This document shows positions 22,920 through 63,736 of a stretch of 64,000 nt of DNA, one piece after another. The stretch's first letter is position 1. Every line of letters begins with the position of its first letter. The notes under the pieces were generated by a model that searched no databases, was not told the DNA's origin, and worked only from the letters and a program-made list of their open reading frames with translations. The stretch comes from Lonicera japonica (Eukaryota > Streptophyta > Magnoliopsida > Dipsacales > Caprifoliaceae): positions 29,113,234 to 29,177,233 of the forward strand of contig CM038471.1 in NCBI GenBank assembly GCA_021464415.1. Direction: 5' to 3'. The translations under genes and the position numbers were made by a program.

Positions 22920-24452
22920 TGTAGACACCCCGATTCGTGACCCCCGCAAGAACCCTAACGACCTTCGAGAACTACTGTTTTTGGGCCCGGGACCCACCCG
23001 AGCACCCGAAACTATCCCGAAAAGGTTTGTTGGACAACAAACTTATTTTTAAGAGAGATTGTCGCACGACATATCACATATGTCGCGCGACAATCACTGA
23101 TATGTCGCGCGACAATCCCACTATGTCGCGCGACAATCCCCCTCTGCACCAGACCATCCACTCTCTGACACATCAGTCATTCAGAAACATCACTTCAGCC
23201 GTTTGTCGTGCGACATATACCCTTTTTGGGGAAGTGTCGCGCGACAATCTTCCCCGAGCAGTATAAATAGGCCAACACCCCCAAGGGTTCAAGCGGCAAC
23301 TGGGGATTGAAGAATTCTAAGTTTTAAATATGATTTTCTAGTCTTTTATTGAGCATTCTCTATTATCGTCTTATTTCGGAAGAATTATCGAATCTATTCT
23401 CGACACTCGACGTGTCCCGTCTCTGGAATCGAATTCTCGAAAATATCTGAAGAAGAAAAAGATTATCATCGCCGAAAATCGCTCCGCCGAATTATATTTT
23501 CTTTCTTATTATCATTCTCGTCGGGAAGGTAAAGAAAGTCTCTTCTAGTATTTAAACATTAAATATCTGTGTACTTGTTTCATTTCTGTTGTTTTGTCCA
23601 CGTTTTATTTGAATAAACTTATTGCCAAGTTACAAATAGTCTATCGTTTTCAAAACAAGAGACCCTGATAAAACCATTTGCAAAACCAGAAGAGTAATTA
23701 CATTACCATCCGGATAAAATCCTGTTTTCAAAATCCGGACCGGTAAAACTTACTTAGGAATTAAAAACCCGATATATCCTATCTGTTTCATAGATTGTGA
23801 TACGTCCGGTAGAACTCCCCTCAAGAGTTCCAATTCCATATTGAATTAGTTTCGATAAAAGATCCGAACTTCTTCCAAAACAAGTCAAAACCCGAAAAAA
23901 TTAGCATTATCCGAGAAATAATACGGGAAACTCCATCTCTAAAGAAAACAACTCTTGTCACTTGTATTTGCATTTCTCAAAACTAAAACTTCGGATCTCG
24001 GAACACAAATGTTTCTATCCCTTTCCCGTTTTTCCAAATTAGGGTTTTCATTTAGAAAGTAGTAGATTGTCAGTAAAAGCATCCAAGTTTTTCAACATAG
24101 AATAAACATATAAAAGACCATTAAAGACCGAAAGGGCGGAATGGGTGCTTAACACCTTCCCAAACCGAAATATAGTTTCCGAACCCTATAGAATCCTGGT
24201 TTCGTAGACAAACGTGTAAAAATAGGCTTAACTGTAGCATTTCCTCTTACACAACCATTTTTGTCCGTTTTCTCATAAAACGTACTGGCGACTCTGAAAG
24301 AACTCCTTCGCATCTAGAAATAGAACATAGGGACACCTGATATGAATCAACAAAGACACTCCAGCAAATGGGATGACGAAATCCGTTCCGACGTCCCAGA
24401 CGCCTAATCGAACGGGGACGAGACCCGGGGGTCGCATTTGCGGATTCTCACA
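22920..24452 (+). repeat. 5' LTR of retrotransposon A
   Basis: It starts TGTAGACACC, ends GATTCTCACA, and is followed by a primer-binding site. The promoter part holds six TGTCGCGCGACA-type palindromes (23060-23246) and TATAAATA at 23262-23269. Confidence 0.95.
23060..23269 (+). promoter_or_regulatory. LTR promoter: palindrome array and TATA box (A, 5' LTR)
   Basis: Palindromes TGTCGCGCGACA (or one-base variants) start at 23060 (variant GCAC), 23081, 23103, 23124, 23204 (variant GTGC) and 23235. The steps within clusters are 21, 22, 21 and 31 bp. The last copy starts 27 bp before TATAAATA at 23262. Every variant is a C-to-T change, on one strand or the other, at the central CpG. Confidence 0.85.
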
Positions 24453-24453
24453 G

Positions 24454-24472
24454 TGGCGACTCTGCTGGGGAC
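24454..24472 (+). other. Primer-binding site of A
   Basis: TGGCGACTCTGCTGGGGAC, one base after the LTR. It is identical in B. From memory this is the tRNA-Arg type used by Ogre elements; the tRNA match was not checked. Confidence 0.75.
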
Positions 24473-25215
24473 TGTTAGAAAACTAGACTCTTATATGTGG
24501 ACTTTTGTTTATCTGTTGAATACTTGCTTTTACTGCTTTCCCTACTTATGTTAATTGATTGAGAAGAAATATTTTTCTAAGAATGGGGGTTTTTCAAAAA
24601 TACGTAATCAAGATAATGATATTTGTAAAACCAGAACTTTCGAACTTTACACGCACTTTCACAAATCATGCATTGGTTCTACGAGTGTGAATTTACCCCA
24701 AACCCTCGGAAGTATTATAAGTGAGTAGGGAGTTGGCTTGCTTGGGCCAACATAAACCGAAAGCATTTACTTCCACTCTCCTTGGCCAAGTACGCCCCCG
24801 AGGTATATCGAGTGACGAGAACACTCACGTACCCGGGAAGTATATCAAAAGGCTCTTGCACGTACCCGCCCCTGGGGTATATCGCAAGGTCTTGCCAAAA
24901 AGGAGGGAGCCTGAAGCCTTAACCGTTCGTACACCTGCGCTGCATATAAGATCGAGTCGAGTTAAAACACTTGTCAAACAGCCGTAGGGGATGTACCACC
25001 TTACGGCTTACTTTCCAACACCTTTTAAAAAAAATCTGAGGCTCTTCTCGACAATTTTTAGTGGTTATTTTGGCAAAAATCGAGTCGCATCACAGTCTCC
25101 CTTCATCTTCGCCACGTGATTTCGTCTACAGTCGTGAAGCAACGACAGACTAGAAGGTTGGGCCGGTCGAGATTATACCAAAAGACTAGTAAGGCCAAGC
25201 ACACCTGAAATGACC
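24473..25215 (+). other. Untranslated leader of A
   Basis: Conserved between A and B. At 24780-24890 it has three copies of a motif like TACCC..GGGGTATATC, which may fold. The open frame at 24721-24987 begins with GTG, not ATG, so I do not call it a gene. Confidence 0.5.
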
Positions 25216-28043
25216 GATGAACGAGAGAACCGAAGACAGATCAGAGCCTAGCCGAGGCGTCTGCACCTCAGCCGACTTTAGCCAAGATGCATCGTTTATT
25301 AATGACCGTTAGCACGAATCTAGCGAGCCTCACAAACGAGCAACAGAATACCCGAGTTCGAGTAGAAGAGTTGTTAGTCGTACGAACCGCACCACCGGGG
25401 TTTGAACGACTACCACCGAATCGAGATCAAGGGCAGTCATCGCAAGTGCTCCCCCTGGTTCCAGGAACCAATCCCCCCCAAACGGGCCCCGTCATGGCCG
25501 GTCCCATTCAAACCGATCCCAACAATCAGAACCAATGGACCCCGAATTCAGGCCCCACTTACCAACAACAAGAGCCACCCATCATCTGGCCACAACCTCA
25601 GCAAGGCCTCGATCCCCAATACCAACCATGGCCACAAGTCCCCGCAAGACCTATTCCACTACCGGCCCCAGTAGCCCCTCCCAATGAATACCCAGACGTC
25701 AACCAACTCCGAGCAGTGTATGCAGAATCGGTTATAGCTCGGGAACAGCCCAACGAGGTGTCAAGAGAGAGCGAAGAGATGAAGAAACTGAAAGAGCAGA
25801 TGAAGGTTCTGCAAAGAGGGATTTCTCTGATAAAAGGGGCAGACGAGATTACAGATATGAATGCTTTCTCCATCTACCCAGAAGCAAGACTGCCTCAGGG
25901 ATTCAAGCTCCCTTCCATCACCAAATTCACAGGGACCACACCCCCCAAAACCCATCTTCAATCCTACATCAGATCCATGCAAGTATCTGGCTGTGGAGAG
26001 CCGGAGCTGGCTCAGGCCTTTCACATGACTCTCACGGGGGCTGCCCTGAGATGGTTTTTTGATTTGGAGAGACACCACACGAAAACTTGGGGGGATATCG
26101 TCAAGGAGTTCATGACCAAGTACGGGTCCAACGAGAATTTAAAAATTACCCGTAAACACCTAGAAATGGCCAAGCAAGGCGAGAAAGAGAGCTTCAGCGA
26201 CTTTGTCACCCGCTGGAGAGAAATGGCCTCCCAAATGTCCAAGCGGCCCGATAAAGAAGAACAGTTGGAGATCATACAGAAGAATTTTACTCCAGCTGTA
26301 TTGAACTGCATGGGAAAGCATGTATTCCCACACTTCAGAGCCCTGTTGAGTATGGGGTCACAAGTAGAGAAAGAATTGGCCAAGAAGGCAGAAACGGATA
26401 CCAAGAAAGCCTCTTACACCGGGAGAAAGACGGCCATTCCAGCCGTAAACCAACTGAGCTCATACCCGTATCAACAAAACTCATTTCAACAGTCACAACA
26501 AGTCCCTCCAATGAGTTGGCCTGCACAAGGAGACTCTTCGAGCACCGAGGCCAAGAAAAGGGGAAATTTTTGCACCCTTTCCACTACCCTGGTCAAAAGC
26601 CTGAAACTACTCCGAAAGGCCGGACTGATCACTCCACTCATCCCGCGCCCCCCACCAAACCCTATTCCCAGCACCTGGAGAATGAATGAGAACTGTGCAT
26701 ACCATCAAGCAGCGGGCTATGACACGGAATGCTGCTTGGCTCTTCGCCATCGTATCCAGGACCTTATTGAAGCCGGAACCATCCCCGCACCCGGCGGGCC
26801 CAATGTTACCAACAACCCCCTTCCCAATCATGCTCCACCTGCGGGAATTAATGCCTTAACCACTGATGAAGAAGGCTTTGACCCCGTAGGACTCATTTGG
26901 GATGACCCAGCTTATAAGGCACCCGTTATGCTACCAGCAAAGGCCCAAGTTGCCCCAGGCCTCAATCCAATAATCGACCAATGGATGGCTAAGATGAACT
27001 TCCTACCTGGGCAGGGCTTAGGAAAGACAAATCAGGGGATCTCGCAACCACTCATAATTAAAACCAATCCCGGAAAATCTGGGATAGGATGGACCCAAGA
27101 GAAGAAGGGACAGCCGTGGAAACCACGAGGCCCCCTTAAGGAGACAATATGTATGACAGAAACCTCCCCCGGGACTTTCGGTTGGTCGAAAGAGCCAGAG
27201 ACATCAAAAATCTCAGAGGGATCAGACCCAGCATCCCTTTGGATACAACAGATTACCCGCTCAGGAAGGGTATACCAGCCACCACCGATGGATGCCGAGA
27301 AATCACCACTTCCTAAGGAAATAGGAGAAGACCGGGTACTGGAACAGTTGAAGAAAACTCAGGCACACATCACTATTTGGGGCCTCTTGGTTGCCTCCAA
27401 ACCTCACAGGACCGCCTTCATCAAACTCCTAGACGAGGCCGTCATATCACTTGATTCCACACCAGAACAACTGCCAAACATGATTGGGTCATTCACAATC
27501 CAAAGAAGTCTGTCATTCTCAGATGAAGACTTATCTCCATTGGGAAGGAAACACAGCTTGGCCCTCCATATCACTGTCCGGACCCGAGGGAAAATATTGT
27601 CGCAAGTCCTCATCGACAATGGGTCAACCATAAACGTCTGTCCCTTGAAGACCGCCAGATGCTTGGGTATCTTGGATTCAGAGCTTTCCCCATCCGCCGT
27701 AACTGTCAGGGCCTATGATAACACCAGGAGAGCCGTTTTGGGTTCTCTAAAACTTGATCTCATGGTCGGTCCTGGAAACTTTCCAGCCGACTTTCAAATC
27801 ATAGACATTCCCTCCAGTTTTAACCTACTGTTGGGAAGGGCATGGCTACACGACGTAGGAGCACTCCCCTCCTCCTTACACCAAAAGATCAAGATACCAT
27901 TTGAAGGGAACATAATCACCGTCCAAGGGGATCCTGAAAGGACCTTGGCAGATCTAGAGTTACCTGTTTTGGGCATCGGGAGCCAGAGCATACAGTTGGG
28001 AGGCTTTTCTTACGAGCCTCAAGTACAAACTCTCAGCACCTAG
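25216..28043 (+). pseudogene. Gag and protease part of the polyprotein, copy A
   Basis: The start matching copy B is ATG at 25216, but a one-base loss soon after shifts the frame. The main open part runs from ATG 25287 (918 residues). In that frame the gag core (PF03732-like: AFHMTLTGAALRWF) is at about 240-345. A CxxH...C knuckle-like motif (C470, H473, C483) follows, then a G-patch-like segment at 563-602 (PGQGLGKTNQG). The aspartic protease has the DNGS active-site loop at 777-780. The frame ends at a TAG (28041-28043) where B has CAG, so C-to-T decay is likely. Gag would package the RNA and the protease would cut the polyprotein. Confidence 0.9.
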
Positions 28044-29721
28044 ATAATCAAGTATCTTCCCCCTGACAATATCCCCAGTCTCAACATCAAGATCACAAAC
28101 ATGTTGAGAATGATGAAATACTTACATGGAGCCAGTCTGGGAATGGGACAGCCAGGACTACTTCAAGCCTTGGAACCAGTAACGAGGTACGAAAGGGAAG
28201 GTTTGGGGTACCAACACACTGAAGAAGACAATCAAGAAAAAAAGGGGTCGAGGGCATCAATATCCGAGTTTCAGCTCTCTGAACGGTTTTTTTGTCAAAG
28301 AAGGAGAGGATTTCCCCTTTTGCGGCTTTCAGGAGCCTTGGAGAAACAGCAACGGAGAGAACCTTTCGGGATGGAAAATCTTCTATGAAGAGGACCTATA
28401 TATCAAGAAAAACATCGTACACAGTTTCTCTACCAAGTTGACAATCGGGCCGAAGGAAGAAAATGAAGACAAGAAAGATGAGGAGGAACAAATGATCGGA
28501 GATCTTTTTGACATCATGGCTTTGGGGGATAACGAGCCAAGAGGCGACCCTGTACACTTGATATACGCTGACCCGGACTACCAAGAAAAGGGGGGAAAGA
28601 GTGAATTTGTAAGGGTGAAAGATAAGAGTGAGGGTAAGGTTAGGAAGGAGTCGCTCCTAAATGAACTTTTTAAACTTGTACCTGTAAACACTATTATCAA
28701 TGAAGAAAACTCTATTTTGCGTTATCCTGTTATTTTTAATTCTGTAATTGCTTATATGGAGTTGGAAAGATTGAATGAACACCCTGAACGGGAGGAGCAG
28801 CGTATACAGAGCGAGAAAGGAGACACTCTTGTAATTAACCTCGGGACAGAAGAGGAAAGAAGAGAGGTCCGCATTGGGGCAAGTCTAAGTGAGACAGAAA
28901 GGGAGGAATTCACGCAAACTCTGAAAGAGTACGTGGATGTCTTCGCCTAGTCTTATGCGGATATGCCAGGTTTGAACAGTCAGATAATCATGCACGAGAT
29001 ACACACCAAGCCAGAATTTAGGCCCGTCAAGCAGAAGTTGAGAAAACTTACGCCAGAATGGTCCTTAAAGGTGAAAGAAGAAGTGATGAAACAATTGAGT
29101 GTGGGTTTCTTAAGGGTGATCGAATACCCTTCGTGGTTAGCCAACATTGTGCCCGTTCCAAAGACAAATGGGAAAGTCCGCATGTGTGTGGATTATCGAG
29201 ATCTTAACAAAGCTTGCCCAAAAGATGATTTCCCATTACCCAACATCGATTTGATAGTGGATAATACTGCCAACCACGCCCTAAAGTCATTTGTGGATGG
29301 TTTCGCCGGGTATAACCAGATCAAGATGCACCCGGATCACCAGGAGAAAACAGCATTCATCACACCGTGGGGGACATACTGCTACACCGTTATGCCATTC
29401 GGGCTGAAAAACGCCGGGGCAACGTATCAGAGGGCAGCTTCCGCTATTTTCCACAATGTGATCCACAAAGAAGTAAAGGTGTATGTGGACGACATGATAA
29501 TCAAATCAAAGGAGAGGGAAGGCCACGTACCAGCCCTGCAAGCTTTCTTTGATCGGCTCCGCCAGTATCAAATGAGACTCAATCCGCATAAATGTGTGTT
29601 CGAGGTAAGCAAGGGAAAACTCCTGGGCTATGTTGTCAGTAAAAAGGGAATCGAGGTAGACCCTGCCAAAGTTCGAGCTATCCAAGACATGCCCGAGCCT
29701 CGTACCGAGAAAGAAGTCTGA
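28044..29721 (+). pseudogene. Second G-patch and reverse transcriptase, copy A
   Basis: After the TAG at 28041 the same protein continues. A second G-patch-like segment lies at about 28100-28210 (MMKYL...GLGMGQPG, REGLGYQ). A one-base shift in the A/G run near 28240 is followed by a charged linker. A stop at 28948-28950 stands where B has Trp. Then comes the reverse transcriptase from 28963 with KVRMCVDYRDLNKA, MPFGLKNAGATYQR and the catalytic YVDD at 29482-29493. TGA at 29719 replaces an Arg codon. The domain would copy RNA into DNA in virus-like particles but cannot be made whole from this copy. Confidence 0.92.
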
Positions 29722-30760
29722 GGATTTTTGGGTAATTTGCAGTACATTAGCAGGTTCATTTCTCAGCTTACTCAAACTTGCGAACCCATCTTCCAACTCC
29801 TGAGGAAGTCTTCACCAGGAGAATGGGACGATCAGTGCCAAGAAGCTTTTGATAAGATAAAAGACTACCTCTCCAGCCCCCCAGTATTAGCCCCACCACA
29901 AACCGGACTACCATTAATTTTATACCTAACCGTCACTGATTCAGCCGCGGGAGCCATGCTAGCCCAACACCTGACCGATACCTGGAAAGAGCAGGCCATC
30001 TATTACATCAGCAAGAAGCTGTCCCCGTTTGAGATAAACTACACACCATTGGAGAAATCATGCACCGCTCTCGTCTGGGTAACACAGAAACTACGGCACT
30101 ACATGCTAGTTTTCTCAGTCATCCTGGCATTACGAATTGATCTGTTAAAATACCTCTTCGAGAAACCAGCTCTCTCGAACCGAATGGAAAAATAGTTATT
30201 TCTACTCTCCGAATTCGACATCACCTACATGACCCAGAAAGCAGTCAAAGGCAAGATCATAGCTGATTACCTGGCCCATAATCCGATATTGGGAGACATG
30301 CTAGAAGAAGCCGAGTTCCCAGACGAAACCATCATGAATGTCGAGATCAATGAGGAATGGAAATTGTACTTCGACAGGGCCGCCAACCAGAATGGAAATG
30401 GGATAGGCATCCTGTTAGTCTCTCCAGACCAAACTCACTCACCGGTATCATATCGTCTAAATTTCTTCTGCACCAACAACATGGCCGAATATGAAGCCTG
30501 CATACTCGGGTTAGAGATTGCTCTCCAAAGGGGAATAAAGAGAATACAGGTATACAGAGATTCAGCACTAGTGGTCCACCAAGTTCTGAAGGAATGGAAA
30601 ATCAGAGATGAGAAATTAGTCCCTTACCTTGCCCGACTGAAGGATGTCGCGGGAAAATTCGAGCATGCGGAGTTTTACTATGTCCCCAGGTCTCAGAATA
30701 GTTTTGCTGACGCACTGGCAACCCTGGCATCTATAATTGATATCCCGGAGGGGATGGAAG
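29722..30760 (+). pseudogene. Connection/RNase H and second (archaeal-type) RNase H, copy A
   Basis: The frame from 29728 has GFLGNLQYISRF and the usual Ty3/gypsy RNase H (LILYLTVTDSAAGAMLAQ), interrupted by TAG at 30193-30195 where B has Trp. From 30340 a second RNase H follows: LYFDRAANQNGNGIG, NNMAEYEACILGL, VYRDSALVV and RSQNSFADALA. Such an extra domain marks the Tat lineage. In A both glycines beside the catalytic Asp residues (YFDG, YGDS in B) have become Arg, each a G-to-A change. Confidence 0.9.
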
Positions 30761-32094
30761 AAATAACTCTTACAGTACAAAAGAAAGCAGGACCATCACA
30801 CTGCATGGCCTTGGAGGTAGAGAATGAAGAGGAAGGGGACTCGACCACTTGGTTTTACGAAATCTGGAACCTGTTGAAAAATCACCAATATCCCGAGCAA
30901 ACAGACAAGAAAACACGGGTCACACTCAGGAGATTAGCATCCGGGTTCATACTTTGTACCGGCAGGCTATATAAGAGGAACTACGACGGGACCCATCTCC
31001 AATGCCTCACCGAAGAAGAATCAGTCAGAATGATGGATCAGATACATAGGGGCGATTGCGGACCTCATATGAGCGGACATACACTTGCCCGCAAAATCAT
31101 CAGACAAGGTTATTTCTGGTCTACCCTGCAAACTGACTGCGCTAACCACGTACGCCGTTGTCACAAGTGCCAAATTTATGCTAAATCCCAAAAGCTTCCT
31201 CCAAAAGAGTTGTACAACATGACTGCTCCCTGGCCTTTCGCAACCTGGGAAATCGACGTCATTGGGAAGATCTCGCCCAAAGCCAGCAACGGCCATGAAT
31301 CCATACTAGTGGCCATCGACTACTTCACCAAATGGGTAGAAGCCGAGTTTTTCCAAACCCTTGATGCCAAAAATGTTGCCCGATTTATCAAAAAGAATAT
31401 TGTCTGTCGGTATGGGGTCCCACACGATATCATCTCGGATAACGGCACCCACTTCGAAGGAGAAGCTAATACAGTCATGAAAGAATATGGTATTACCCAA
31501 CACAGGTCTTCGCCATACAGGCCACAAACCAATGGGGCAGTTGAAGCCGCCAACAAGAATATGAAGAATATCCTAAGCAAGATGACCGACACCTTCCGGG
31601 ACTAGCCGAAAAAATTACCATATGCATTGTGGGGATACCGCACCACCGAGAGGGTCTCCACCAGGGCAACCCCGTTTTCTCTTACATACGGGATGGAAGC
31701 AGTCCTCCCTGTTGAGTTAGAAGTCCCCTCCCTCAGAGTAATGCTAGAGAATCAAGTCAATGAACTGGAGTGGGTCCAGGCACGTTATAACGAGCTAGCC
31801 CTACTGGATGAAAAGAGATTGAAGGCCGCGTACCACCATCAAGGGTATCAGAAGAGAATTGCCCAAGCATTTAACCAGAAAATGAGGACTCGGGGTATCA
31901 ATGAGAACGATATCGTATTGAAAGAAATTCGAGAGCCAGCCAGAGATCCGAGGGGTAAGTTTGGGCAGAAGTGGACAGGGCCGTATATCGTCAAAGAAAT
32001 CGATACAGGGGGTGCCGCTATACTCGTTGATTTGGATGGACAGTTACTGCATTCTCCGGTCAACATGGATCGACTGAAGAAGTATTATCAATAG
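30761..32094 (+). pseudogene. Integrase, copy A
   Basis: An HHCC zinc-binding domain (H..GPHMSGH, CHKC) at about 31040-31170 is followed by the DDE catalytic core: ATWEIDVIG, then IISDNGTHFEG, then NGAVEAANKN. A TAG at 31603-31605 replaces Trp. The tail has RGKFGQKWTGPYIV, a GPY/F-like module, and ends at TAG 32092-32094. Integrase inserts the cDNA and makes the 5-bp target duplication seen at both elements. Apart from the one stop the domain is complete, unlike copy B's. Confidence 0.92.
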
Positions 32095-32315
32095 GTGTAA
32101 CATGTAAGACAAGAACTACGTAAACCTGAGCCCCAACAAAAATTATGTTGTTCTGAAAAAATTAAAAAGGGGAACGTAGGCAACCTGAGAAGTGACTTCA
32201 GGCCCGGTTTAAACTTTGTAAAGAAATTTATTTCTCATAAGCAGTCCTTCATATATTATTAAAAGGTGGTTCAGAACACCGGAAGTTACAAAGGAGATAC
32301 AACATACAGAAGAGA
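32095..32315. terminator. Convergent gap between pol and antisense gene 1 (A)
   Basis: The 221 bp separate the 3' ends of pol (plus) and the antisense gene (minus). The AT-rich part at 32219-32275 probably holds poly(A) signals: on the minus strand it has AATAAATTTC and AATAATATATG. No reading frame is conserved here. Confidence 0.4.
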
Positions 32316-33572: not shown

Positions 33573-33610
33573 TTTGGGAAAGTGTGGGGATAAAGGAAGG
33601 AAGATGGGTG

Positions 33611-33688
33611 TATTTATAGCAAAAAAGAGGGTCATGTGCCTATTTGTCGCGCGACAAACCCCTGTCCAGGAGGGATTGTCGCGCGACA
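33611..33688 (-). promoter_or_regulatory. Promoter of antisense gene 1 (A): two palindromes and TATA
   Basis: TGTCGCGCGACA at 33645-33656 and 33677-33688 (32 bp apart). The TATA box on the minus strand is TATAAATA (33618-33611), starting 38 bp from the start of the nearer palindrome. The ATG follows about 40 bp further on. Confidence 0.8.
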
Positions 33689-33699
33689 AACCCATTTAG

Positions 33700-34033
33700 G
33701 GTCACCTTATTTTTGTTTTCTTTACACATAACAGTTATTTTTGCCAAAAGAATTATTTCTGGATGCTTTCTTGTTTTCACTTTGTTCTTTTGCAGGAAAC
33801 ATAAGTATCACTACGCTAACAAGGTATGGCTTCTAAAATCGCCGACCCATGTATATATATATGTATATATCTTTCACAGACAAAGAATAAAAGTATAATC
33901 AGACACAGATAAAGATATTTTATAAATCCAATAAAAAAACAATTTTTAAGACTAAATATCTGTCTAAACATGTCTAAATAAATACATATCTGTCCAAAAT
34001 AACACTAAATGCAGAAAGGGAAAGCTAATCTAC
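33700..34033. other. Spacer between antisense genes 1 and 2 (A)
   Basis: AT-rich, with a (TA)n stretch at 33850-33870. No reading frame is conserved with B. It is the region just after antisense gene 2 (minus strand) and upstream of the gene 1 promoter. Confidence 0.5.
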
Positions 34034-37979: not shown

Positions 37980-38039
37980 CCGTGTATATGTAATATGTGA
38001 GAAGAGTCGGAAAAGCGGCAGGGCTTCCGCGCTTGGGAG

Positions 38040-38178: not shown

Positions 38179-38189
38179 AACCCATCCCA

Positions 38190-39800: not shown

Positions 39801-39894
39801 GCACTTTTTGCATATACACTCCTTTAGAGTTCATGCGGGAGCCATGGATCATGGTCTCTTCTAGTCGCCTCAATCCCTTACAAGCAAGGAGCTT

Positions 39895-48330: not shown

Positions 48331-48345
48331 GGGATGAGGGGGGGT

Positions 48346-48510: not shown

Positions 48511-48576
48511 CAAGCGCGGAAGCTCTGCCGTGTTTTTGACTTTTCCGACCTTTTCACATATATTCTACCTATATTG

Positions 48577-52935: not shown

Positions 52936-52941
52936 TGGGTT

Positions 52942-53051
52942 TGTCGCGCAATAATCCCTCCTGGTCATGGGTTTGTCGCGCGACACTTCCCCCTGAAAAT
53001 GGGTTTGTCGCGCGACAAACAGGTACAGGACCCTCTTTTTTGCTATAAATA
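52942..53051 (+). promoter_or_regulatory. Promoter of antisense gene 1 (B): three palindromes and TATA
   Basis: Sites start at 52942 (decayed, TGTCGCGCAATA), 52974 and 53006, exactly 32 bp apart. TATAAATA at 53044-53051 starts 38 bp after the start of the last palindrome, as in A. ATG at 53090. Confidence 0.8.
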
Positions 53052-53089
53052 CACCCATCTTCCTTCCTTCATCCCCACACCTCTCCAAA

Positions 53090-54346: not shown

Positions 54347-54573
54347 TTTCTTCTTTGTATGCTGTACTTCCTTTGTAACTCTCGGTGTTCTGAACCACCT
54401 CTTTAATAATATATGAAGGGACTTTTATGAGAAATAAATTTCTTTACAAAGCTTTAAACCGGGCCTGAAGTCACTTCTCAGGTTGCCTACGTTCCCCCCT
54501 TTTTGATTTTTTTCCAGAAAATACAATATTCGAGTTGGGGCTCAGGTTTACGTAGTTCTTATACATGTCGTGC
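54347..54573. terminator. Convergent gap between antisense gene 1 and pol (B)
   Basis: Counterpart of 32095-32315. AATAATATATG (54404-54415) and AATAAATTTC (54425-54436) on the plus strand are possible poly(A) signals for the antisense gene. Confidence 0.4.
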
Positions 54574-55720
54574 TTATTGATAATACTTCTTCAGTCGGTC
54601 CATGTTGACTGGTGAATGTAGTAACTGCCCGTCTAGGTCAGTGAGTATAGCGGCGCCTCCTGTATTGATTTCTTTGACGATATACGGCCCTGTCCACTTC
54701 TGCCCGAACTTTCCCCTCGGATCTCTGGCTGGCTCTCGAATTTCTTTCAACACGATGTCATTTTCATTGATACCCCGAGTCCTCACTCTCTGGTTAAATG
54801 CTCGAGCGATTCTCTTCTGATACCCTTGATGGTGGTATGCGGCTTTCAATCTTTTCTCATCTAGTAAGGCTAGCTCGTTATAACGTGCCTGGACCCACTC
54901 CAGTTCATTGACCTGATTCTCTAGCATTACTCTGAGGGAAGGGACCTCTAACTCGACAGGGAGGACTGCTTCCATCCCGTATGTAAGCGAGAACGGGGTT
55001 GCCCCGGTAGAGACCCTTTCGGTGGTGCGGTATCCCCACAATGCATATGGTAATTTCTCCGGCCAGTCCCGGCAGGTGTCGGTCATCTTGCTTAGGATAT
55101 TCTTCAAATTCTTGTTGGCGGCTTCAACTGCCCCATTGGTTTGTGGTCTATATGGCGAAGATTTGTGTCGGGTGATACCGTATTCTTCCATGACTGTATT
55201 AGCTTCTCCTTCGAAGTGGGTGCCGTTATCTGAGATGATCTCGTGTGGGACCCCATATCGGCAGACAATATTCCTTTTGATGAATCGGGCAACTTTCACC
55301 CATTTGGTGAAGTAGTCGATGGCTACTAGTATGAATTCATGGCCGTTGCTGGCTTTGGGTGAGACTTTCCCAATGACGTCAATTCCCCAAGCTGAAAAAG
55401 GCCAGGGAGCAGTCATGTTGTACAACTCTTTTGGAGGAAGCTTCTGGGACTTAGCATAAATTTGGCATTTGTGACAACGGCGTACATGATCAGCGCAGTC
55501 AGTTTGTAGGGTAGACCAGAAATACCCTTGCCTGATGATCTTGCGGGCAAGCGTATGCCCGCTCATATGAGGTCCGCAATCGCCCCCATGTATCTGATCC
55601 ATCATTCTAACCGATTCTTCTTCGGTGAGACATTGAAGATGAGTCTTGTCGTAGTTCCTCTTATACAATCTTCCGGCACAGAGTATGAATCCTGATGCTA
55701 GTCTCCTGAGTGTGACCCGC
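54574..55720 (-). pseudogene. Integrase, copy B
   Basis: Open from about 55668 to the stop at 54574. The HHCC zinc domain, D of AWGIDVIG, D of IISDNGTHFEG and E of NGAVEAANKN are all present. However, an in-frame loss of about 11 residues, just after DYFTKWV between the first two catalytic Asp residues, probably disables it. The C-terminal RGKFGQKWTGPYIV is intact. A deletion at about 55715-55735 breaks the frame against the upstream RNase H region. Confidence 0.9.
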
Positions 55721-57210
55721 GTTCTCGGGATACTGATGGTTCTTCAGCAGGTTCCAGATATCATAAAACCAAACGGTTGAGTCACCGTCTTTTTCAATTT
55801 CCACCTCAAGGGTTATGCAGTGCGCGGGTCCTGATTTCTTTTGTACCGTGAGGGTTATTTCTTCCATCCCCTCCGGAATATCGATCATAGATGCCAGGGT
55901 TGCCAATGCGTCAGCAAAACTGTTTTGGGACCTGGGGATATAGTAAAACTCCACACGCTCGAACCTTCCTGCGACTTCTTCTAGTCGGGCGAGGTAAGGG
56001 ACTAATTTCTCATCTCTGATCTTCCATTCCTTCAGAACTTGATGGACCACTAGTGCTGAATCTCCGTATACCTGTATTCTCTTTATACCCCTTTGAAGAG
56101 CGATCTCTAACCCGAGTATGCAGGCTTCATATTCGGCCATATTGTTGGTGCAGAAAAAGTCCAGACGATATGACACCGGGGAGTGAGTTTGGTCCGGAGA
56201 AACTAACAGGATGCCTATCCCGTTTCCGTTCCGATTGGCGGCCCCGTCAAAGTACAACCTCCAGTCTTCATTGATCTCGACGTTCATGATGGTTTCGTCC
56301 GGGAACTCGGCTTCTTCTATCATGTCTCCCAATATCGGATTGTGGGCCAGGTAATCAGCTATGATCTTGCCTTTGACTGCCTTCTGGGTCATGTAGGTGA
56401 TGTCGAATTCGGAGAGTAGAAATAACCATTTTGCCATTCGATTCGAGAGAGCCGGTTTCTCGAAGAGGTATTTCAACGGATCAATCCGTGATGCCAGGAT
56501 GACTGGAAAAACTAGCATGTAGTGCCGTAGTTTCTGTGTTACCCAGACGAGAGCGGTACACGATTTTTCCAATGGTGTGTAGTTTATCTCAAATGGGGAT
56601 AGCTTTTTGCTGAGGAAATAGATGGCCTGCTCCTTCCGGGTATCGGTGAGGTGTTGGGCTAGCATTGCTCCTGCGGCTGAATCAGTGACGGTTAGGTATA
56701 GAATTAGTGGTAGTCCGGTCTGAGGCGGGGCTAACACTGGGGGCTTGGAGAGGTAATCTTTGATTTTGTCAAAAGCCTCCTGGCATTGATCGTTCCATTC
56801 TCCTGTTGAAGACTTCCTCAGGAGTTTGAAGATGGGTTCGCACTTTTGAGTGAGCTGAGAGATAAACCTACTGATGTACTGCAGATTACCCAAAAAACCC
56901 CGGATTTTTCTCTCGGTACGAGGCTCGGGCATGTCTTGGATAGCTTGAACTTTAGCGGGGTCCACCTCGATTCCTTTCTTACTGACGACATATCCCAGGA
57001 GTTTTCCTTTGGTTACCCCGAACACACATTTCTGCGGATTGAGTCTCATCTGATACTGGCGGAGCCGATCAAAGAAGGCTCGCAAGGCTGGTACGTGGCC
57101 TTCCCTCTCTTTTGACTTGATTATCATGTCGTCTACATACACCTCTACTTCTTTGTGAATCATGTCGTGAAAGATAGCCGTAGCTGCCCTCTGATACGTG
57201 TTGCCCCGGC
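55721..57210 (-). pseudogene. Reverse transcriptase end, RNase H and archaeal-type RNase H, copy B
   Basis: One open frame carries YVDD (57139-57128), FLGNLQYISRF, the Ty3/gypsy RNase H (LILYLTVTDSAAGAMLAQ), then the second RNase H with LYFDGAANRNGNGIG, NNMAEYEACILGL, VYGDSALVV and RSQNSFADALA. All catalytic acidic residues and both flanking glycines are kept, unlike in A. A one-base insertion near 57200 separates it from the first half of the reverse transcriptase. Confidence 0.92.
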
Positions 57211-58870
57211 GTTCTTCAGCCCAAACGGCATAACGGTGTAGCAGTATGTTCCCCACGGTGTGATAAATGCTGTTTTCTCCTGGTGATCCGGGTGCATCTT
57301 GATCTGGTTATATCCGGCAAAACCATCCACAAATGACTTCAGGGCGTGGTTGGCAGTATTATCTACTATCAAATCGATGTTGGGCAATGGAAAATCGTCC
57401 TTTGGACAAGCTTTATTGAGATCCCGGTAATCCACACACATGCGGACTTTCCCATTAGCTTTTGGAACAGGCACGATGTTGGCTAACCACGAGGGGTACT
57501 CGATCACCCGTAAGAATCCCACACTCAGTTGTTTCATTACTTCTTCTTTCACTTTTAAGGACCATTCTGGCGTAAGTTTCCTCAGCTTCTGTTTGACGGG
57601 CCTAAGTTCTGGATTGGTGTGTATTTCGTGCATGACTATCTGACTGTTCAAACCCGGCATATCTGCATAAGACCAGGCGAAGACATCCACATACTCTTTC
57701 AGAGTTTGTGTGAATTCTTCTCTCTCTGTCCCACTTAGGCTTGCCCCAATGCGGACCTCTTTTCTTTCCTCCTCTGTTCCGAGGTTAATCACAAGAGTGT
57801 CTCCTTCCTCGCTTTGTATACGTTGCTCCTCCCGTTCAGGGTGTTCGTTCATTCTTTCCAATTCCATATAAGCAATTACAGAATTAAAAATAACAGGATA
57901 ACGCAAAATAGACTCTTCTTTATTGATACTAGTATTTACAGGTACAAGTTTAAAAAGTTCATTTAGGAGTGACTCCTTCCTATCCTTACCTTCACTCTTA
58001 TCTCTCACCCTTACAATTTCGCTCTTTTCCCTTTCCCCTTGGTAGTCTGGATCAGCGTATATCAAGTGTACAGGGTCGTCTCCTGGCTCATCATCTCCCA
58101 GAGCCATGATGTCGAAGAGATCTCCGATCATTTCTTCCTCTTCGCCTTTCATGTCTTCACTTTCTTCCTTCGGCCCGATTGTCAACCTGGTAGCGAAGCT
58201 GTGTACGGTGTTTTCTTTGATATATAGGTCCTCTTCATAGAAGATTTCCCACCCAGGAAGGTTCTCTCCGTCGCTGTTTCTCCAAGGCTCCTGGAAGCCG
58301 CAAAAGGGGAAGTCCTCTCCTTCTTTGACAAAGAACCCGTTCAGAGAGCTGAAACTCGGATACTGATGCTCTCGACCCCTTTTTTGTTGATCGTCCTCTT
58401 CAGTGTGTTGGTACCCCAAACCTTCCCTCTCGTACCTTGCTACTGGTTCCAATGCTTGAAGTAGTCCTGGTTGTCCCATTCCCAGACCGGCTCCAGGCAA
58501 GTATTTCATCATTCTCAACATATTTGTAATCTTGGTGCTGAGACCGGGGATATTGTCAGGGGGAAGATACCTGATTGTCTGGGTGCTAAGAGTTTGCACT
58601 TGAGGCTCGTAAGAAAAGCCTCCTAACTGCATGCTCTGGCTCCCGATTCCCAAAACTGGTAACTCCATATCCGCCAAGGTCCTTTCAGGATCTCCTTGGA
58701 TGGTAATTATGTTCCCTTCAAACGGTATCTTGATCTTTTGGTGCAAGGAGGAGGGGAATGCTCCTATGTCGTGTAGCCATGCTCTTCCCAACAGTAGGTT
58801 AAAACTGGAAGGAATGTCTATGATTTGAAAGTCGGCCGGGAAGCTTCCGGGACCAATCATGAGATCAAGT
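57200..58870 (-). pseudogene. Protease end, second G-patch and reverse transcriptase start, copy B
   Basis: Open from about 58870 (a one-base loss near 58876 separates it from gag-protease). It has LLLGRAWLHD (end of protease), a G-patch-like segment (MMKYLPGAGLGMGQPG, YEREGLGYQ) at about 58400-58520, an acidic linker, then the reverse transcriptase fingers with VRMCVDYRDLNKA and MPFGLKNAGA. In B the frame runs from protease to reverse transcriptase without a stop, so no intron is needed here, unlike what is described for Ogre of legumes. Confidence 0.9.
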
Positions 58871-58871
58871 T

Positions 58872-61412
58872 TCAGAGACCCAGAACGGCCCTCCTGGTAT
58901 TATCATAGGCCCTGACGGTTACAGCGGATGGTGAGAGCTCTGAATCTGAGATACCCAAGCATCTGGCAGTCTTTAGGGGGCAGACATTTATGGTCGACCC
59001 ATTGTCGATGAGAACTTGTGGCAAGATCTTTCCTCGGGTTCGGACGGTGATATGGAGAGCCAGGCTGTGTTTTCTCCCCAACGGAGACAAGTCTTCATCT
59101 GAAAATGACAGACTTCTTTGGACTGTGAGTGACCCGATCATGTTTGGCAGTTGTTCGGGCGTGGAGTCCGGCGATATGACAGCCTCATCCAGGAGTTTAA
59201 TGAAAGCGGTCCTGTGAGGTTTGGAGGCAACCAAGAGGCCCCAAATGGTGATGTGTGCCTGGGTTTTCTTCAACTGTTCCAGTACTCGGTCTTCTCCTAC
59301 TTCTTTTGGAGGCGGTGATTTTTCGGCATCCATTTGTGGTGGCTGGTATACCTTTCCTGAGCGGGTAATCTGTTGTATCCAAAGGGATGTTGGGTCTGAT
59401 CCCTCTGAAGTTTCTGACGACTCTGGCTCTGCCGACCAACTAAAAGTCCCGGGGGAGGTTTCTGTCATACAGATTGTCTCCTTATGAGGGGGGCGGGGTT
59501 TCCATGGTTGTTTTTTCTTGTCCTGGGTCCATCCTATCCCAGCTTTCCCAGGATTGGTTTTGATGGTGAGTGGTTGCGAGATCCCCTGATTTGTCTTTCC
59601 TAAGCCCTGCCCAGGTAGGAAGTTCATCTTGGCCATCCATTGGTCAATTATTGGGTTGAGGCCTGGGGCAACTTGTGCTTTTGCCGATAGCATAACGGGT
59701 GCCTTATAGGCTGAATCGTCCCGAATGAGTCCCACGGGATCAAAGCCTTCATCAGTGGTTAAGGCGTTAATTCCTGCAGGTGGAGCATGATTGGGGAGGG
59801 GGTTGTTGGTAACATTGGGCCCGCCGGGTGCGGGGATGGTTCCGGCTTCAATGAGGTCCTGGATACGATGGCGGAAAGCTAAACAACGTTCCGTGTCATG
59901 GCCTGCCGCCTGATGGTACGCACAGTTCTCATTCATTCTCCAAGTGTTGGGAATAGGATTTGGTGGAGGGCGTGGGTTGAGTGGGGTGACTAGTCCGGCC
60001 TTTTGGAGTAGTTCCAGGCTTTTGACCAGAGTAGTGGGGAGGGTGCAGAAATTTCTCCTTTTCTTGACCTCGGTGTTTGAAGAGTCTCCCTGCGTAGGCC
60101 AACTCATTGGGGGGACTTGCGGTGACTGCTGAAATGGGTTTTGTTGATATGGGTACGAGCTTAGTTGGTTTACGGCTGGAGTGGCCGTCTTTCTTCCAGT
60201 GTAAGAGGCCTTCTTGGTATCCGTGTCCGCCTTTCTGGCCAATTCTTCCTCTACCTGTGACCCCATACTCAACAGGGCTCTGAAGTGTGGGAATACATGC
60301 TTTCCCATGCAGTTCAATACAGCTGGAGTAAAATTCTTCTGTATGATTTCTAACTGCTCTTCTTCGTCGGGCCGTTTGGACATTTGGGATGCCATTTCCC
60401 TCCAGCGGGTGACAAAGTCACTGAAGCTTTCTTTCTCGCCTTGCTTGGCCATTTCCAGGTGTTTACGGGTAATTTCCAAATTCTCGTTGGACCCGTACTT
60501 GGTCATGAATTCTTTGACGATATCCCCCCAAGTTTTCGTGTGGTGTTTCTCTAGGTCGAAGAACCATCTCAGGGCTGCCCCCGTGAGAGTCATGTGAAAA
60601 GCCTGAGCCAGCTCCGGCTCTCCACAGCCGGACACTTGCATGGATCTGATGTAGGATTGGAGATGGGTTTTGGGGGGTGTAGTACCAGTGAATTTGGTGA
60701 TAGAGGGGAGCTTAAATCCTTGAGGTAGTCTGGCTTCTGGGTAGAGGGAAAAGGCGTTCATGTCTGTGATCTCGTCTGCCCCTTTCATCAGAGAAACACC
60801 TCTTTGTAGAACCTTCATCTGCTCTTTCAATTTCTTCATTTCTTCGCTCTCTCTTGACACCTCATCGGGCTGTTCCCGGGCTATCATTGATTCTGCGTAT
60901 ACTGCCCGGAGTCGGTTGATGTCTGGGTACTCATTGGGAGGGGCTATTGGGGCTGGTGGAATAGGTCTTGCGGGGACTTGTGGCCATGGTTGATATTGGG
61001 GATCGAGGCCTTGCTGAGGTTGTGGCCAGACGATAGGTGGCTCTTGTTGTTGGTATGTGGGGCCTGAATCCGGGGCCCATTGGTTCTGATTGTTGGGGTC
61101 GGTTTGAACGGGACCGGCCATGTTGGGGCCCGTTTGGGGTGGATTGGTTCCTTGGATTGGGGGAAGTACTTGTGAAGATTGCCCTTGATTCGGATCTCGA
61201 TTCGGTGGTAGTTGCTCAAACCCGGGTGGTGCGGTCCGTTCGGCTGACAACTCTTCCATTCGAATCCGGGTGTTCTGTTGCTCACTTGTGAGGCTTGCCA
61301 AATTCATGCTGACGGTCATCAACAAACGGTGCATCTCGGCTAAAGTCGGTTGAACTGCAGACGCCTCGGCTAGGCTCTGATTTGTCTCCTGATTCTCTCG
61401 TCCATCGGCCAT
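58872..61412 (-). pseudogene. Gag and protease, copy B
   Basis: ATG at 61412-61410 (MADGRENQ), a few bases after the leader. Upstream in-frame sequence starts with GTG and is not used. It has a proline/glutamine-rich N-terminus, the gag core (AFHMTLTGAALRWF), a CAYHQAAGHDTERC knuckle, a G-patch-like PGQGLGKTNQG, and a protease with LIDNGSTINV. It ends by frameshift near 58876. Gag itself is complete, so this copy could supply particle protein even though its pol is broken. Confidence 0.92.
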
Positions 61413-62145
61413 TTCAGGTATGCTTGGTCTCACTAGTCTTCCGGTATGATCTCGACCGGCCCAACCTTCCAGACTGACGTCGCTTTATGGCTGTAGGCGA
61501 AACCACGTGGCGAAGATGAAGGGAGACTATGATGCGACTCGATTTTTGCCAAAAGAATCACTAAAAATGGTCGAGAGAAAACCTCGGAAAATAGGTGTGG
61601 TAAAGTAAGCCGCAAGGTGGTACATCCCCTACAGCTGTATGACAAGTGTTTTAACTGACTCAATCTTAGATGCAGCGCAGGTGTTCGAACGGTTAAGGCT
61701 TCAGGCTCCCTCCTTTTTGGCAAGACCTTGCGATATACCCCAAGGGCGGGTACGTGCAAGAATCTTTTGATATACTTCCCGGGTACGTGAGTGTTCTCGT
61801 CACTCGATATACCTCGGGGGCGTACTTGGCCAAGGAGAGTGGAAGTAAATGCTTTCGGTTTATGTTGGCCCAAGCAAGCCAACTCCCTACTCACTTATAA
61901 TACTTCCGAGGGTTTGGGGTAAACTTCACACTCGTAGAACCAATGCATGATTTGTGATAGTGCGTGTAAAGTTCGAAAGGTTGGTTTCACAAATATCATT
62001 ATCTTTATTACGTCTTTTCGAAAAACTCCCATTTTTTAGAAAAAGGTTTCTTCTCAATCAATTAACATGAGTAGGGAAAGCAGTAAAAGCAAGTTTTCAA
62101 CAGATAAACAAAGGTCCACATATAAGAGTCTAGTTTTCTAATGGT
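61413..62145 (-). other. Untranslated leader of B
   Basis: Counterpart of 24473-25215, with the same GGTATATC-type motifs at 61733-61820. Confidence 0.5.
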
Positions 62146-62164
62146 GTCCCCAGCAGAGTCGCCA
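62146..62164 (-). other. Primer-binding site of B
   Basis: The minus strand reads TGGCGACTCTGCTGGGGAC, one base from the LTR, identical to A. Confidence 0.75.
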
Positions 62165-62165
62165 C

Positions 62166-63736
62166 TGTGAGAATCCGCAAATGCGACCCCCCGGGTCTCG
62201 TCCCCGTTGGTTGTGGGGGTCATGGGACGTCGGAACTGATTCCGTCGTTCCATTTGCTGGAGCGTTTTCTTTGATTCATATCAAGTGTCCCTACGTTCTA
62301 TTTCTAGATGCAAGGGGGTTCATTCAGAGTCGCCAGTACGTTTTACGAGAAAACGGACAAAAAAGGTCGTGTAAGAGGAAAGGCTATAGACAAGCCTTTC
62401 TTTACACGTTTGTCTGCGAAACCGGGATTCTTATAGGGGTTCGGAAACTATATTACGGTTTGGGAAGGTGTTAAGCACCCATTCCGCCCTTTCGGTCTCT
62501 AGTGGTCTTATATGTTTATTCTATGTTGAAAAACTTGGATGCTTTTACCGACAGTCTACTACTTTCTAAAAAAAAACCTAATTTGGGAAAACGGGGAAAG
62601 GGATGAAAACCTTTGTGTTCCGAGATCCGATGTTTTTATATTTAAAAGATGTGAATGACAAATGACAAAAACCTTTTATTTTTGAAAGAGTATTCCGTAT
62701 TATTTCCTCAGATAATGACGGTTTTCTCGAGTTGTGATTATTTTGAAAAAGGTTCGGATCTTTATGTCGGGACTAATTCAATATGGAATTTGAACTCTTT
62801 GAGGAGAGTTTATCAGACACGTCGCAGTCTATGAAAAAGACAAGATATGTGGATTTTAATTCCTAGATAAGTCTTTATCGGTCCGGGGTTTGAAAACAGG
62901 GTTTATCCGGACGATAATGTACTTACTCTTCTGGTTTTGAAAGTAGTTTTATCAGGGTCTTTTGTTTTGAAAACGGTAGACTATTGGTAACTTGACAATA
63001 AGTTTATTCAAATAAAACGTGGACAGAATAACAGAAGTAAAACAAGTACACAGATATCTAATCTTAAATACTAGAAGGGACTTTCTTTACCTTCCCGACG
63101 AGAATAATAATAAGAAAGAAAATATAATACGGCAGAGGGATCTCTGGCGATAGTAATCTTCTCTTTCCTTCAGATATTTCCGAGAAATCGATTCCAGAAA
63201 CGGAACACGTCGAGTGTTGAAATAGATTCGAGAATTCTTCAAAAATAAGATAATAGTAAAAAAAAAAAATGCTTGACAAAAATCAGATCTAAAGCACCAA
63301 ATTCTCGGATTCTAATTGCCGCCTTTGAACCCTTGGGGGTGTTGGTCCTATTTATACTGCTCGGGAGAGATTGTCGCGCGACATTTCCTTAAAAAAGGAG
63401 AATGTCGCGCGACATTGTGATATGTCGCGCGACATACGGGAATGTCGCGCGACAAACGGCTGAAGTGATGGTTCTGACAGTTTGATGTGTCAGAAAGTGG
63501 TTGGTCTGGTGCAGAGGGGGAATGTCGTGCGACATAGTGGAATTGTCGCGTGACATATCAGGGATTGTCGCGCGACAATGTGATATGTCGTGCGACAATC
63601 TCTCTAAAAAACAAGTTTATCGGGCGACAAACCCTCCTAGTGTAGTACCGGGTCCTCGGGTGGGTCCCGGACCCAAAATAGTAGTTCTCGGAGGTCGTTA
63701 GGGTTCTTGCGGGGGTCACGGATCGGGGTGTCTACA
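62166..63736 (-). repeat. 5' LTR of retrotransposon B
   Basis: Nearly identical to 45137-46705. The differences I saw are one-base insertions near 63167 and 63345 and substitutions near 63242 and 63550; the last one changes a palindrome (TGTCGCGTGACA). Eight palindromes lie between 63372 and 63597. Confidence 0.95.
63372..63597 (-). promoter_or_regulatory. LTR promoter: eight-palindrome array (B, 5' LTR)
   Basis: Two clusters of four TGTCGCGCGACA-type sites, separated by an 80-bp step conserved in the family (containing GGTCTGGTGCAGAGGGG). The TATA box follows at about 63357-63350 on the minus strand. Confidence 0.85.

What the first reader, a model, noticed from the sequence alone, without database searches (positions are those of the whole stretch)
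22920..63736. One palindromic operator, TGTCGCGCGACA, sits at all three promoter classes of a retrotransposon
The 12-bp palindrome (three CpGs, intact or with one changed base) occurs about 36 times: 6 and 5 in A's LTRs, 8 and 8 in B's LTRs, 2 and 2-3 before antisense gene 1, and 2 and 3 before antisense gene 2. I noticed none elsewhere in the 64 kb. Each array ends just upstream of a TATA box. Three separate transcription units on two strands sharing one operator implies common control, by a host factor or by an element-encoded protein. Two antisense genes of unknown function are the obvious candidates. This recalls VANDAL elements, whose VANC proteins recognise short motifs in their own DNA.
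Basis: partly seen in the sequence, partly recalled or inferred. Interest (0 to 1): 0.93.

Follow-up and report, generated by a model that had tools for sequence, protein, structure and literature searches.

The report
Shared operator on a plant retrotransposon
Two related plant retrotransposons carry the same 12-letter palindrome, in arrays, just upstream of all three of their predicted promoters, which likely lets one protein, perhaps made by the element itself, switch all of its genes together.

Summary
TGTCGCGCGACA occurs 27 times exactly and 36 times with at most one mismatch (40 with at most two; 0.41 expected by chance). Of the 40, 39 form arrays ending 11-26 bp before TATA boxes of three transcription units in two Ogre-like Ty3/gypsy elements: the LTR (6, 5, 9, 9 sites), antisense gene 1 (2, 3) and antisense gene 2 (2, 3). 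None lies in the 26.9 kb outside the elements. The motif is longer, about RWW-TGTCGCGCGACA-WWY, and symmetric. The three promoter types share nothing else detectable beyond a TATA box, so descent from one promoter does not explain it. Site-to-TATA distances (15, 26, 11 bp) are identical in both elements. Aligned sites differ at 4.2% of positions, against 14.7% outside. Both antisense genes weakly resemble the plant mobile domain (PMD). Gene 1 is intact in both copies, with dN/dS 0.09 like gag. A third copy, annotated in Lonicera macranthoides, appears to keep both gene-1 sites. I read this as an operator for a dimeric regulator of the whole element, most likely one of its own PMD-like proteins. 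The binder is unproven; a host factor remains a serious rival. The searches made listed no report of such a shared operator.

The parts
22920..41421 (+). Element A, Ogre-like Ty3/gypsy LTR retrotransposon; LTRs 22920-24452 and 39909-41421, TSD CCTGG
   Evidence: LTR alignment 92.3% identity; TSD and LTR ends
45137..63736 (-). Element B, same family, young; LTRs 62166-63736 (5') and 45137-46705 (3'), TSD CAAGC
   Evidence: LTR alignment 99.75%; TSD; a related repeat copy without the insertion near 18.73 kb
23060..23246 (+). Operator array, 5' LTR of A: sites start 23060, 23081, 23103, 23124, 23204, 23235; TATA at 23262
40049..40214 (+). Operator array, 3' LTR of A: 40049, 40070, 40150, 40172, 40203; TATA at 40230
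46341..46598 (-). Operator array, 3' LTR of B: 46341, 46372, 46392, 46412, 46492, 46513, 46535, 46555, 46587; TATA begins at 46325 (minus)
63372..63629 (-). Operator array, 5' LTR of B: 63372, 63403, 63423, 63443, 63523, 63544, 63566, 63586, 63618; TATA begins at 63356 (minus)
33645..33688 (-). Operator pair before antisense gene 1 of A: 33645, 33677; TATA begins at 33618 (minus)
52942..53017 (+). Operator trio before antisense gene 1 of B: 52942 (two mismatches), 52974, 53006; TATA at 53044
38137..38178 (-). Operator pair before antisense gene 2 of A: 38137, 38167; TATA begins at 38125 (minus)
48346..48410 (+). Operator trio before antisense gene 2 of B: 48346, 48376, 48399; TATA at 48422
32316..33572 (-). 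Antisense gene 1 of A, 418 aa, intact, PMD/DUF7745-like
53090..54346 (+). Antisense gene 1 of B, 418 aa, intact, PMD/DUF7745-like; 96% identical to Lonicera macranthoides P0001
34037..37979 (-). Antisense gene 2 of A, several exons (inferred), PMD-like pieces at 36363-36629 and 35787-36359; reading frame interrupted
48577..52620 (+). Antisense gene 2 of B; inferred exons 48577-48822, 50036-50702, 50792-50965, 51055-about 52110, about 52254-52620; exon 2 interrupted; last part RS-rich and basic; intron 1 holds a 68-bp minisatellite
   Evidence: splice-like GT/AG ends and frames; order of the last two exons matches Lonicera P0005
58872..61433 (-). gag ORF of B with G-patch; pol ORFs follow at 57160-58860, 55661-57256 and 54574-55668 (RT, RNase H, second RNase H, integrase)

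Best explanation
TGTCGCGCGACA, repeated in arrays just upstream of three predicted promoters of these two elements, is likely an operator for a dimeric DNA-binding protein that would switch the LTR and both antisense genes together, and that protein is probably one of the element's own PMD-like antisense products. Shown by sequence: the arrays, their symmetry out to about 18 bp, their fixed distance to each TATA-like box, their near-exclusive place at these spots within the window, the lack of other detectable similarity among the three promoter types, and dN/dS well below 1 for gene 1 and for the two exons of gene 2 that could be compared. Inferred: that a protein binds; that it binds as a dimer (from dyad symmetry), perhaps cooperatively (spacings of 20-23 and 30-32 bp, about 2 and 3 helical turns); that it is element-encoded; and that it activates or keeps the element unsilenced rather than represses it (sites upstream of, not over, the TATA box). 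Such a loop would let one expressed copy work in trans on every copy that carries the operator, including broken ones such as B.
For: 27 exact and 40 near matches against 0 and 0.41 expected; 39 of 40 at the three promoter types and 0 in 26.9 kb outside the elements. Flanks of 25 non-redundant sites: A/T at -1 in 46 of 50, at -2 in 49 of 50, purine at -3 in 43 of 50. Last site to TATA: 15 bp in 4 of 4 LTRs, 26 in 2 of 2 gene-1 promoters, 11 in 2 of 2 gene-2 promoters. Motif-masked promoters of different types align no better than shuffles: the 12 between-type pairs had 12 to 200 of 200 shuffles at least as good; the 3 same-type A-B pairs had 0 of 200. Aligned sites, A against B: 5 of 120 positions changed, 302 of 2059 outside, Fisher p 0.0006. 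Pairwise dN/dS: gene 1 0.093, gene 2 exon 1 0.063, exon 4 0.246; gag 0.097, second RNase H part of pol 0.122, last part of pol 0.049. P0001 of Lonicera macranthoides reads MGLSRDT...CRATN upstream of gene 1, as the two exact operators of B do when translated. Site number changes in whole units, 5-9 per LTR, while spacing classes persist. Precedents in passages read: VANC21 binds short repeated motifs of its own element (PMC5735166); Arabidopsis PMD proteins MAIN/MAIL1 are needed for expression of genes sharing a promoter motif (PMC7156037, PMC9899485).
Against: No binding data. PMD similarity of both genes in the window is below Pfam's cut-off and no known DNA-binding domain was matched; no relative of known structure; model unusable. 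It is not known whether MAIN/MAIL1 touch chromatin (PMC9899485), and their motif differs. Gene 2 is interrupted in both copies. Site conservation is measured only on sites still recognisable in both copies, which favours the motif; against the LTR array spacers alone p is 0.03, and for A's 3' LTR against B p is 0.13. One of only two substitutions between B's LTRs falls in a site. The closest between-type promoter pair (LTR of B and gene 1 of B) is borderline, 12 of 200 shuffles as good. Helical phasing is weak: a 12-bp period fits as well as 10. No CpG footprint of protection around the arrays. The motif's abundance elsewhere in the genome is unknown.
Confidence: 0.5

Rival explanations
1. The operator is a binding site for a host transcription factor that the element has captured at all three promoters, for example a C2H2 INDETERMINATE DOMAIN (IDD) factor, whose site TTTGTCGTATT resembles the half-site.
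For: IDD proteins bind TTTGTCGTATT and sequences with a GTC(G/C) core (PMC7349898 passages). TTTGTCG stands on at least one side of 11 of 27 exact sites and on both sides of 4; by promoter, in 8 of 9 exact gene-promoter sites (counted from the listing). U3 arrays bound by host factors are known in plant retrotransposons (Tnt1, Tto1, ONSEN; recalled).
Against: 16 of 27 exact sites lack TTTGTCG on both sides, and only 3 of 18 exact LTR sites have it (counted); the two positions also take A (15 and 22 of 50 non-redundant flanks). A perfect 12-bp dyad with constrained flanks is longer and stricter than usual host sites (inference). Strict VCGCGB (CAMTA, recalled) fits 0 of 27. None in 26.9 kb outside the elements, though that is a small sample.
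Confidence: 0.33
2. Same element-encoded binder, opposite sign: a PMD protein represses the LTR and its own genes, a copy-number brake.
For: Operators at the regulator's own promoters are the layout of autorepression; the same anatomy supports either sign.
Against: Sites end 11-26 bp before the TATA box and none overlaps it. An array of up to nine sites at the main promoter is more usual for activation (inference).
Confidence: 0.15
3. The palindromes act in RNA: neighbouring copies pair as hairpins in the genomic RNA, for dimerisation, packaging or small-RNA production.
For: The 268-nt B array folds at -123 kcal/mol, shuffles -57, z -14.5. Palindromic GC stems are used in retroviral dimerisation (recalled).
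Against: Any array of one palindrome must fold this way, so the score is no independent support. The sites lie upstream of TATA boxes at fixed distances in all three units and, in the LTR, outside the expected 5' leader.
Confidence: 0.05
4. Spread by sequence exchange or array slippage without function: one promoter seeded the others.
For: Site number changes by whole units between LTRs and elements.
Against: Nothing but the motif and a TATA box is detectably shared among promoter types; flanks differ in sequence but obey the same A/T rule; sites change less than surroundings.
Confidence: 0.04

Closest known systems
Ogre clade of Tat Ty3/gypsy retrotransposons with antisense PMD ORFs
   Same: Second RNase H before integrase, antisense ORFs after pol, PMD similarity, long element with tandem repeats (PMC6317226 sections 9 and 13: PMD in 57% of Ogre elements)
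   Different: No shared cis motif for LTR and antisense promoters was mentioned in the parts read
VANDAL DNA transposons and VANC anti-silencing proteins (Arabidopsis)
   Same: Short motif repeated in non-coding parts of one element family, recognised by an element-encoded protein; arrays change size quickly (PMC5735166, PMC10398659 passages)
   Different: DNA transposon (recalled); motif YAGTATTAY is not a palindrome and arrays run in one orientation; binding is shown there and only inferred here
Spm/En TNPA and its 12-bp subterminal motif (maize CACTA transposon)
   Same: 12-bp repeated motif (length seen in PMC2613891); binding by an element protein, CpG content and effect on the promoter are recalled
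   Different: DNA transposon; motif is not a palindrome (recalled)
Retand/Grande elements with antisense TRP28 ORFs
   Same: Antisense ORF after pol, in Grande with its own promoter and a nuclear protein (gene23); proposed regulator (PMC11963269, PMC7264820)
   Different: Domain is TRP28 (PF04195), not found here; no operator described in the parts read
MAIN/MAIL1/PP7L and the DOWN promoter motif (Arabidopsis)
   Same: PMD proteins tied to genes sharing a promoter motif (PMC7156037, PMC9899485 passages)
   Different: Host proteins; motif CATGCAGTTT at MORC1; contact with chromatin unknown

Membership tests
Ogre (Tat, Ty3/gypsy) | gag-RT-RH-INT order of Ty3/gypsy | tested here: met
   B: gag, RT, RNase H, second RNase H, integrase in order. 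A: gag, RT, second RNase H, integrase in order; the ORF at 29728-30195 was not scanned. No protease match in either.
Ogre (Tat, Ty3/gypsy) | Second RNase H domain between RH and INT (Ogre and Retand) | tested here: met
   B: RVT_3 after RT_RNaseH and before integrase; A: RVT_3 before integrase; rule from PMC6317226
Ogre (Tat, Ty3/gypsy) | tRNA-Arg primer binding site | tested here: inconclusive
   TGGCGACTCTGCTGGGGAC follows the 5' LTR in both; that this matches tRNA-Arg is recalled; Ogre use of tRNA-Arg seen in PMC9289625
Ogre (Tat, Ty3/gypsy) | Extra ORF with PMD | tested here: inconclusive
   PF10536 matches at E 1e-3 to 9e-6, below the curated cut-off in the window's copies; P0001 carries PF10536 in precomputed annotation; 7 of 7 aligned gene-1 proteins, two of them the window's own, match PMD and DUF7745 at E<=0.1
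Ogre (Tat, Ty3/gypsy) | RT phylogeny | not tested
   No reference RT set was fetched
Retand with TRP28 | Antisense TRP28 (PF04195) domain | tested here: not met
   No match in gene 1 or in the gene 2 pieces scanned
VANDAL/VANC | Element is a DNA transposon encoding VANC (recalled) | tested here: not met
   Both are LTR retrotransposons with gag and pol and 5-bp TSDs
VANDAL/VANC | Element-encoded protein binds the repeated motif | not testable with these tools
   Needs EMSA or ChIP
CAMTA-controlled promoter | CGCG box VCGCGB (recalled) | tested here: not met
   0 of 27 exact sites with one flanking base each side
IDD-controlled promoter | TTTGTCG half-site | tested here: inconclusive
   At least one side in 11 of 27 exact sites

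The most novel reading that the evidence does not exclude
An LTR retrotransposon with its own regulon: a PMD-family dimer encoded on the antisense strand binds one palindromic operator at the LTR and at its own two promoters, switching on or un-silencing every copy of the family in trans. It would be a VANC-like system evolved independently in a retrotransposon and would give the orphan PMD family a molecular job.
Probability: 0.38. Interest if true: 0.92.

Novelty: new variant of a known kind. Interest (0 to 1): 0.72.

Why it matters
PMD genes sit in more than half of surveyed Ogre elements (PMC6317226), and the domain's function is given as unknown (PMC9289625). A single compact operator shared by the LTR and by those genes' own promoters turns the question into one binding assay and one reporter assay. 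If the PMD protein binds, it explains why these genes are kept, gives a sequence-specific handle on a large class of plant repeats, and offers a lead on how the host PMD proteins MAIN and MAIL1 find their targets.

Tried and rejected
Structure: AlphaFold of gene 1 with 7 sequences gave pLDDT 46, so no fold search was run and no structural claim is made. PDB sequence searches found only chance-level rows (E 1.7 and 0.55). Relatives' DNA: no locus in viral contigs by gene-1 protein, gene-1 alignment or gene-2 alignment, nor in genome contigs by the gene-1 alignment; extended operator GWWTGTCGCGCGACAWWC: 0 stretches in viral contigs. These collections are viral and prokaryotic, so this says little about plants. 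Protein relatives: 3, 5 and 4 proteins in three searches, each scoring only the roughly 8,000 candidates that share most words.

Considered and dropped: CAMTA and ARF as binders; methylation protection as a claim, since motif-masked CpG ratios show no peak at the arrays and in-site CpG changes (1 of 11 for A's 5' against 3' LTR, 3 of 17 for A's 5' LTR against B) are not clearly fewer than outside (15 of 68, 28 of 76; difference not tested); strict helical phasing, because 10 and 12 bp fit alike. Direct homology of gene 1 with a gene 2 piece was not found (probability 0.2).

Rows dropped: the match at 30645 (two mismatches, pol region); columns that are site in one copy only; redundant LTR copies from the non-redundant flank count (25 of 39 sites kept). 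In A the ORF 29728-30195 was not given to the Pfam scan.
Full report
What is there. The window is plant DNA: the antisense gene 1 product is 96% identical to a protein of Lonicera macranthoides. It holds two related Ty3/gypsy elements. A lies on the plus strand at 22920-41421 (LTRs 92.3% identical, TSD CCTGG); B lies on the minus strand at 45137-63736 (LTRs 99.75% identical, TSD CAAGC). B matches gag with a G-patch, reverse transcriptase, RNase H, a second RNase H and integrase; A matches gag with a G-patch, reverse transcriptase, the second RNase H and integrase, one ORF not having been scanned. Between pol and the 3' LTR each has two genes on the opposite strand: gene 1 (418 aa, one exon, intact in both) and gene 2 (several exons, inferred from GT/AG ends and frames; interrupted in both). 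Second RNase H before integrase is the mark of Ogre and Retand among angiosperm elements, and PMD extra ORFs were found in 57% of Ogre elements (PMC6317226, section 13); no TRP28 domain, the Retand mark, was found here. I call the family Ogre-like; RT phylogeny was not tested.

The motif. TGTCGCGCGACA occurs 27 times exactly (0 in 100 shuffles) and 40 times with up to two mismatches (0.41 expected). One of the 40 (30645) is in the pol region and looks like chance. The other 39 sit in eight arrays: LTRs of A (6, 5), LTRs of B (9, 9), gene 1 (A 2, B 3), gene 2 (A 2, B 3). The 26.9 kb outside the elements has none. It is the most frequent palindromic 12-mer of the window, above AT runs (27 against 20).

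It is longer than 12 bp. In 50 flanks of 25 non-redundant sites the two bases next to the core are A/T in 46 and 49, the third is a purine in 43. So the unit is about RWW-TGTCGCGCGACA-WWY. The 9 one-mismatch variants are all C-to-T or G-to-A changes in a CpG, 8 of them in the central CpG, so TGTCG and CGACA look like the strict halves; no other spacing between the halves is used (35 with 2 bp between, 0 for the other gaps of 0-10 bp).

Place and spacing. From the end of the last site to the TATA box is 15 bp in all four LTRs, 26 bp before gene 1 in both elements and 11 bp before gene 2 in both. Neighbouring sites are 20-23, 30-32 or 80 bp apart. This suggests two or three helical turns, but a 12-bp period fits as well as 10, so I treat it as a hint. 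Arrays change by whole units: B has an extra unit of 23 bp before gene 2 and of 32 bp before gene 1 compared with A, and A's two LTRs differ by units as well.

Not inherited from one promoter. With the motif masked, promoters of different types align no better than shuffled sequence: the 12 between-type pairs had 12, 22, 23, 99, 104, 117, 177, 200, 99, 68, 69 and 43 of 200 shuffles at least as good (the lowest, LTR against gene 1 of B, is borderline); the three same-type A-B pairs had 0 of 200. Three otherwise unrelated promoters carrying one 18-bp dyad is the strongest single argument for a common binder.

Constraint. A and B differ at 302 of 2059 aligned positions outside sites and 5 of 120 inside (p 0.0006). 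The test is conditioned, since a site must be recognisable in both. Against LTR array spacers alone the figures are 19 of 134 and 3 of 72 (p 0.03); with A's 3' LTR in place of its 5' LTR, 204 of 1422 and 4 of 60 (p 0.13). One of the two substitutions between B's LTRs falls in a site. Pairwise dN/dS is 0.093 for gene 1, 0.063 for gene 2 exon 1 and 0.246 for exon 4, against 0.097 for gag, 0.122 for the second RNase H part of pol and 0.049 for the last part of pol: the antisense genes look kept like the core genes, exon 4 less strictly. A third copy, P0001, was annotated from an upstream start, and its extra residues (MGLSRDT...CRATN) match what the two exact operators of B encode, so both sites appear kept there; this is peptide-level evidence only.

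Who binds. Both antisense genes resemble the plant mobile domain, gene 1 at E 1e-3 (B) and 3e-5 (A), gene 2 pieces of A at 5e-5 and 9e-6, all below the curated cut-off; 7 of 7 aligned gene-1 proteins, two of them the window's own, match PMD and DUF7745 at E<=0.1. Gene 2's inferred last part is RS-rich and basic. Arabidopsis PMD proteins MAIN and MAIL1 are required for expression of genes that share a promoter motif, but contact with chromatin is unknown (PMC7156037, PMC9899485 passages). VANC21 of VANDAL21 binds a short motif repeated in its own element and causes loss of methylation there (PMC5735166 passages). In Grande the antisense gene has its own promoter and a nuclear product (PMC7264820). 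These make an element-encoded PMD binder the most likely reading, at about one half. No binding domain was recognised and the structure model failed. The best host rival is an IDD factor (PMC7349898 passages), whose half-site occurs on at least one side of 11 of 27 exact sites: 8 of 9 in the gene promoters but 3 of 18 in the LTRs (counted).

Mechanism proposed. A PMD dimer recognises the dyad; arrays gather several dimers beside each TATA box; transcription of genomic RNA and of both antisense genes rises together, or silencing is blocked. B is young yet its gene 2 and RT frames are interrupted, so it was probably mobilised in trans, as the model allows. The sign and the binder are inferred. 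No CpG pattern of protection was seen at the arrays.

What is known. A search of the open paper library for the exact string gave one unrelated chicken gene paper. Searches for antisense ORFs, PMD, Ogre, palindromes and promoters (for the listing shows 12 of 280 papers) listed no report of one operator shared by LTR and antisense promoters. Papers seen: PMC11963269 parts 1-3 of 5; PMC7264820 parts 1-2 of 3; PMC6317226 passages and sections 9, 13; PMC9289625 passages and section 12; PMC7156037, PMC9899485, PMC5735166, PMC10398659, PMC7349898, PMC2613891 passages; others as listings only. Papers outside this library, including the original Grande, Retand and extra-ORF reports cited in these, were not seen.

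Noticed in passing
48953-50019 (B) and 36634-37602 (A): A 68-69-bp minisatellite fills much of intron 1 of antisense gene 2 in both elements, with very little CpG (o/e 0.0-0.4 in the 500-bp windows over it); VANC21 targets also include intronic tandem repeats.
   Followed up: partly
39010-39808 and 46895-47400: Further tandem repeats (30-, 89- and 46-bp units) lie between the gene 2 promoter and the 3' LTR of A and B.
   Followed up: no
45137-63736: Element B is recent (LTRs 99.75% identical) but its gene 2 and RT reading frames are interrupted, so it was probably mobilised by another copy.
   Followed up: partly
7157-9184: Open frame of 675 aa with FAR1, MULE transposase and SWIM domains, a FAR1/MULE-type gene.
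   Followed up: no
13712-15270: A 1.6-kb region that is its own inverted repeat (93%), with short ACGTGAGA-type repeats; looks like a foldback element.
   Followed up: no
15268-18958, 42375-45132, 63740-63965: Another repeat present twice; B is inserted in the second copy, and the first copy lacks the insertion.
   Followed up: partly
1-165, 3195-3359 and 2417-3002: Direct repeat of 165 bp (99%) on either side of a 62-bp minisatellite.
   Followed up: no
46335-46602: As RNA the LTR array folds far better than shuffles (z -14.5), which follows from repeating one palindrome.
   Followed up: partly
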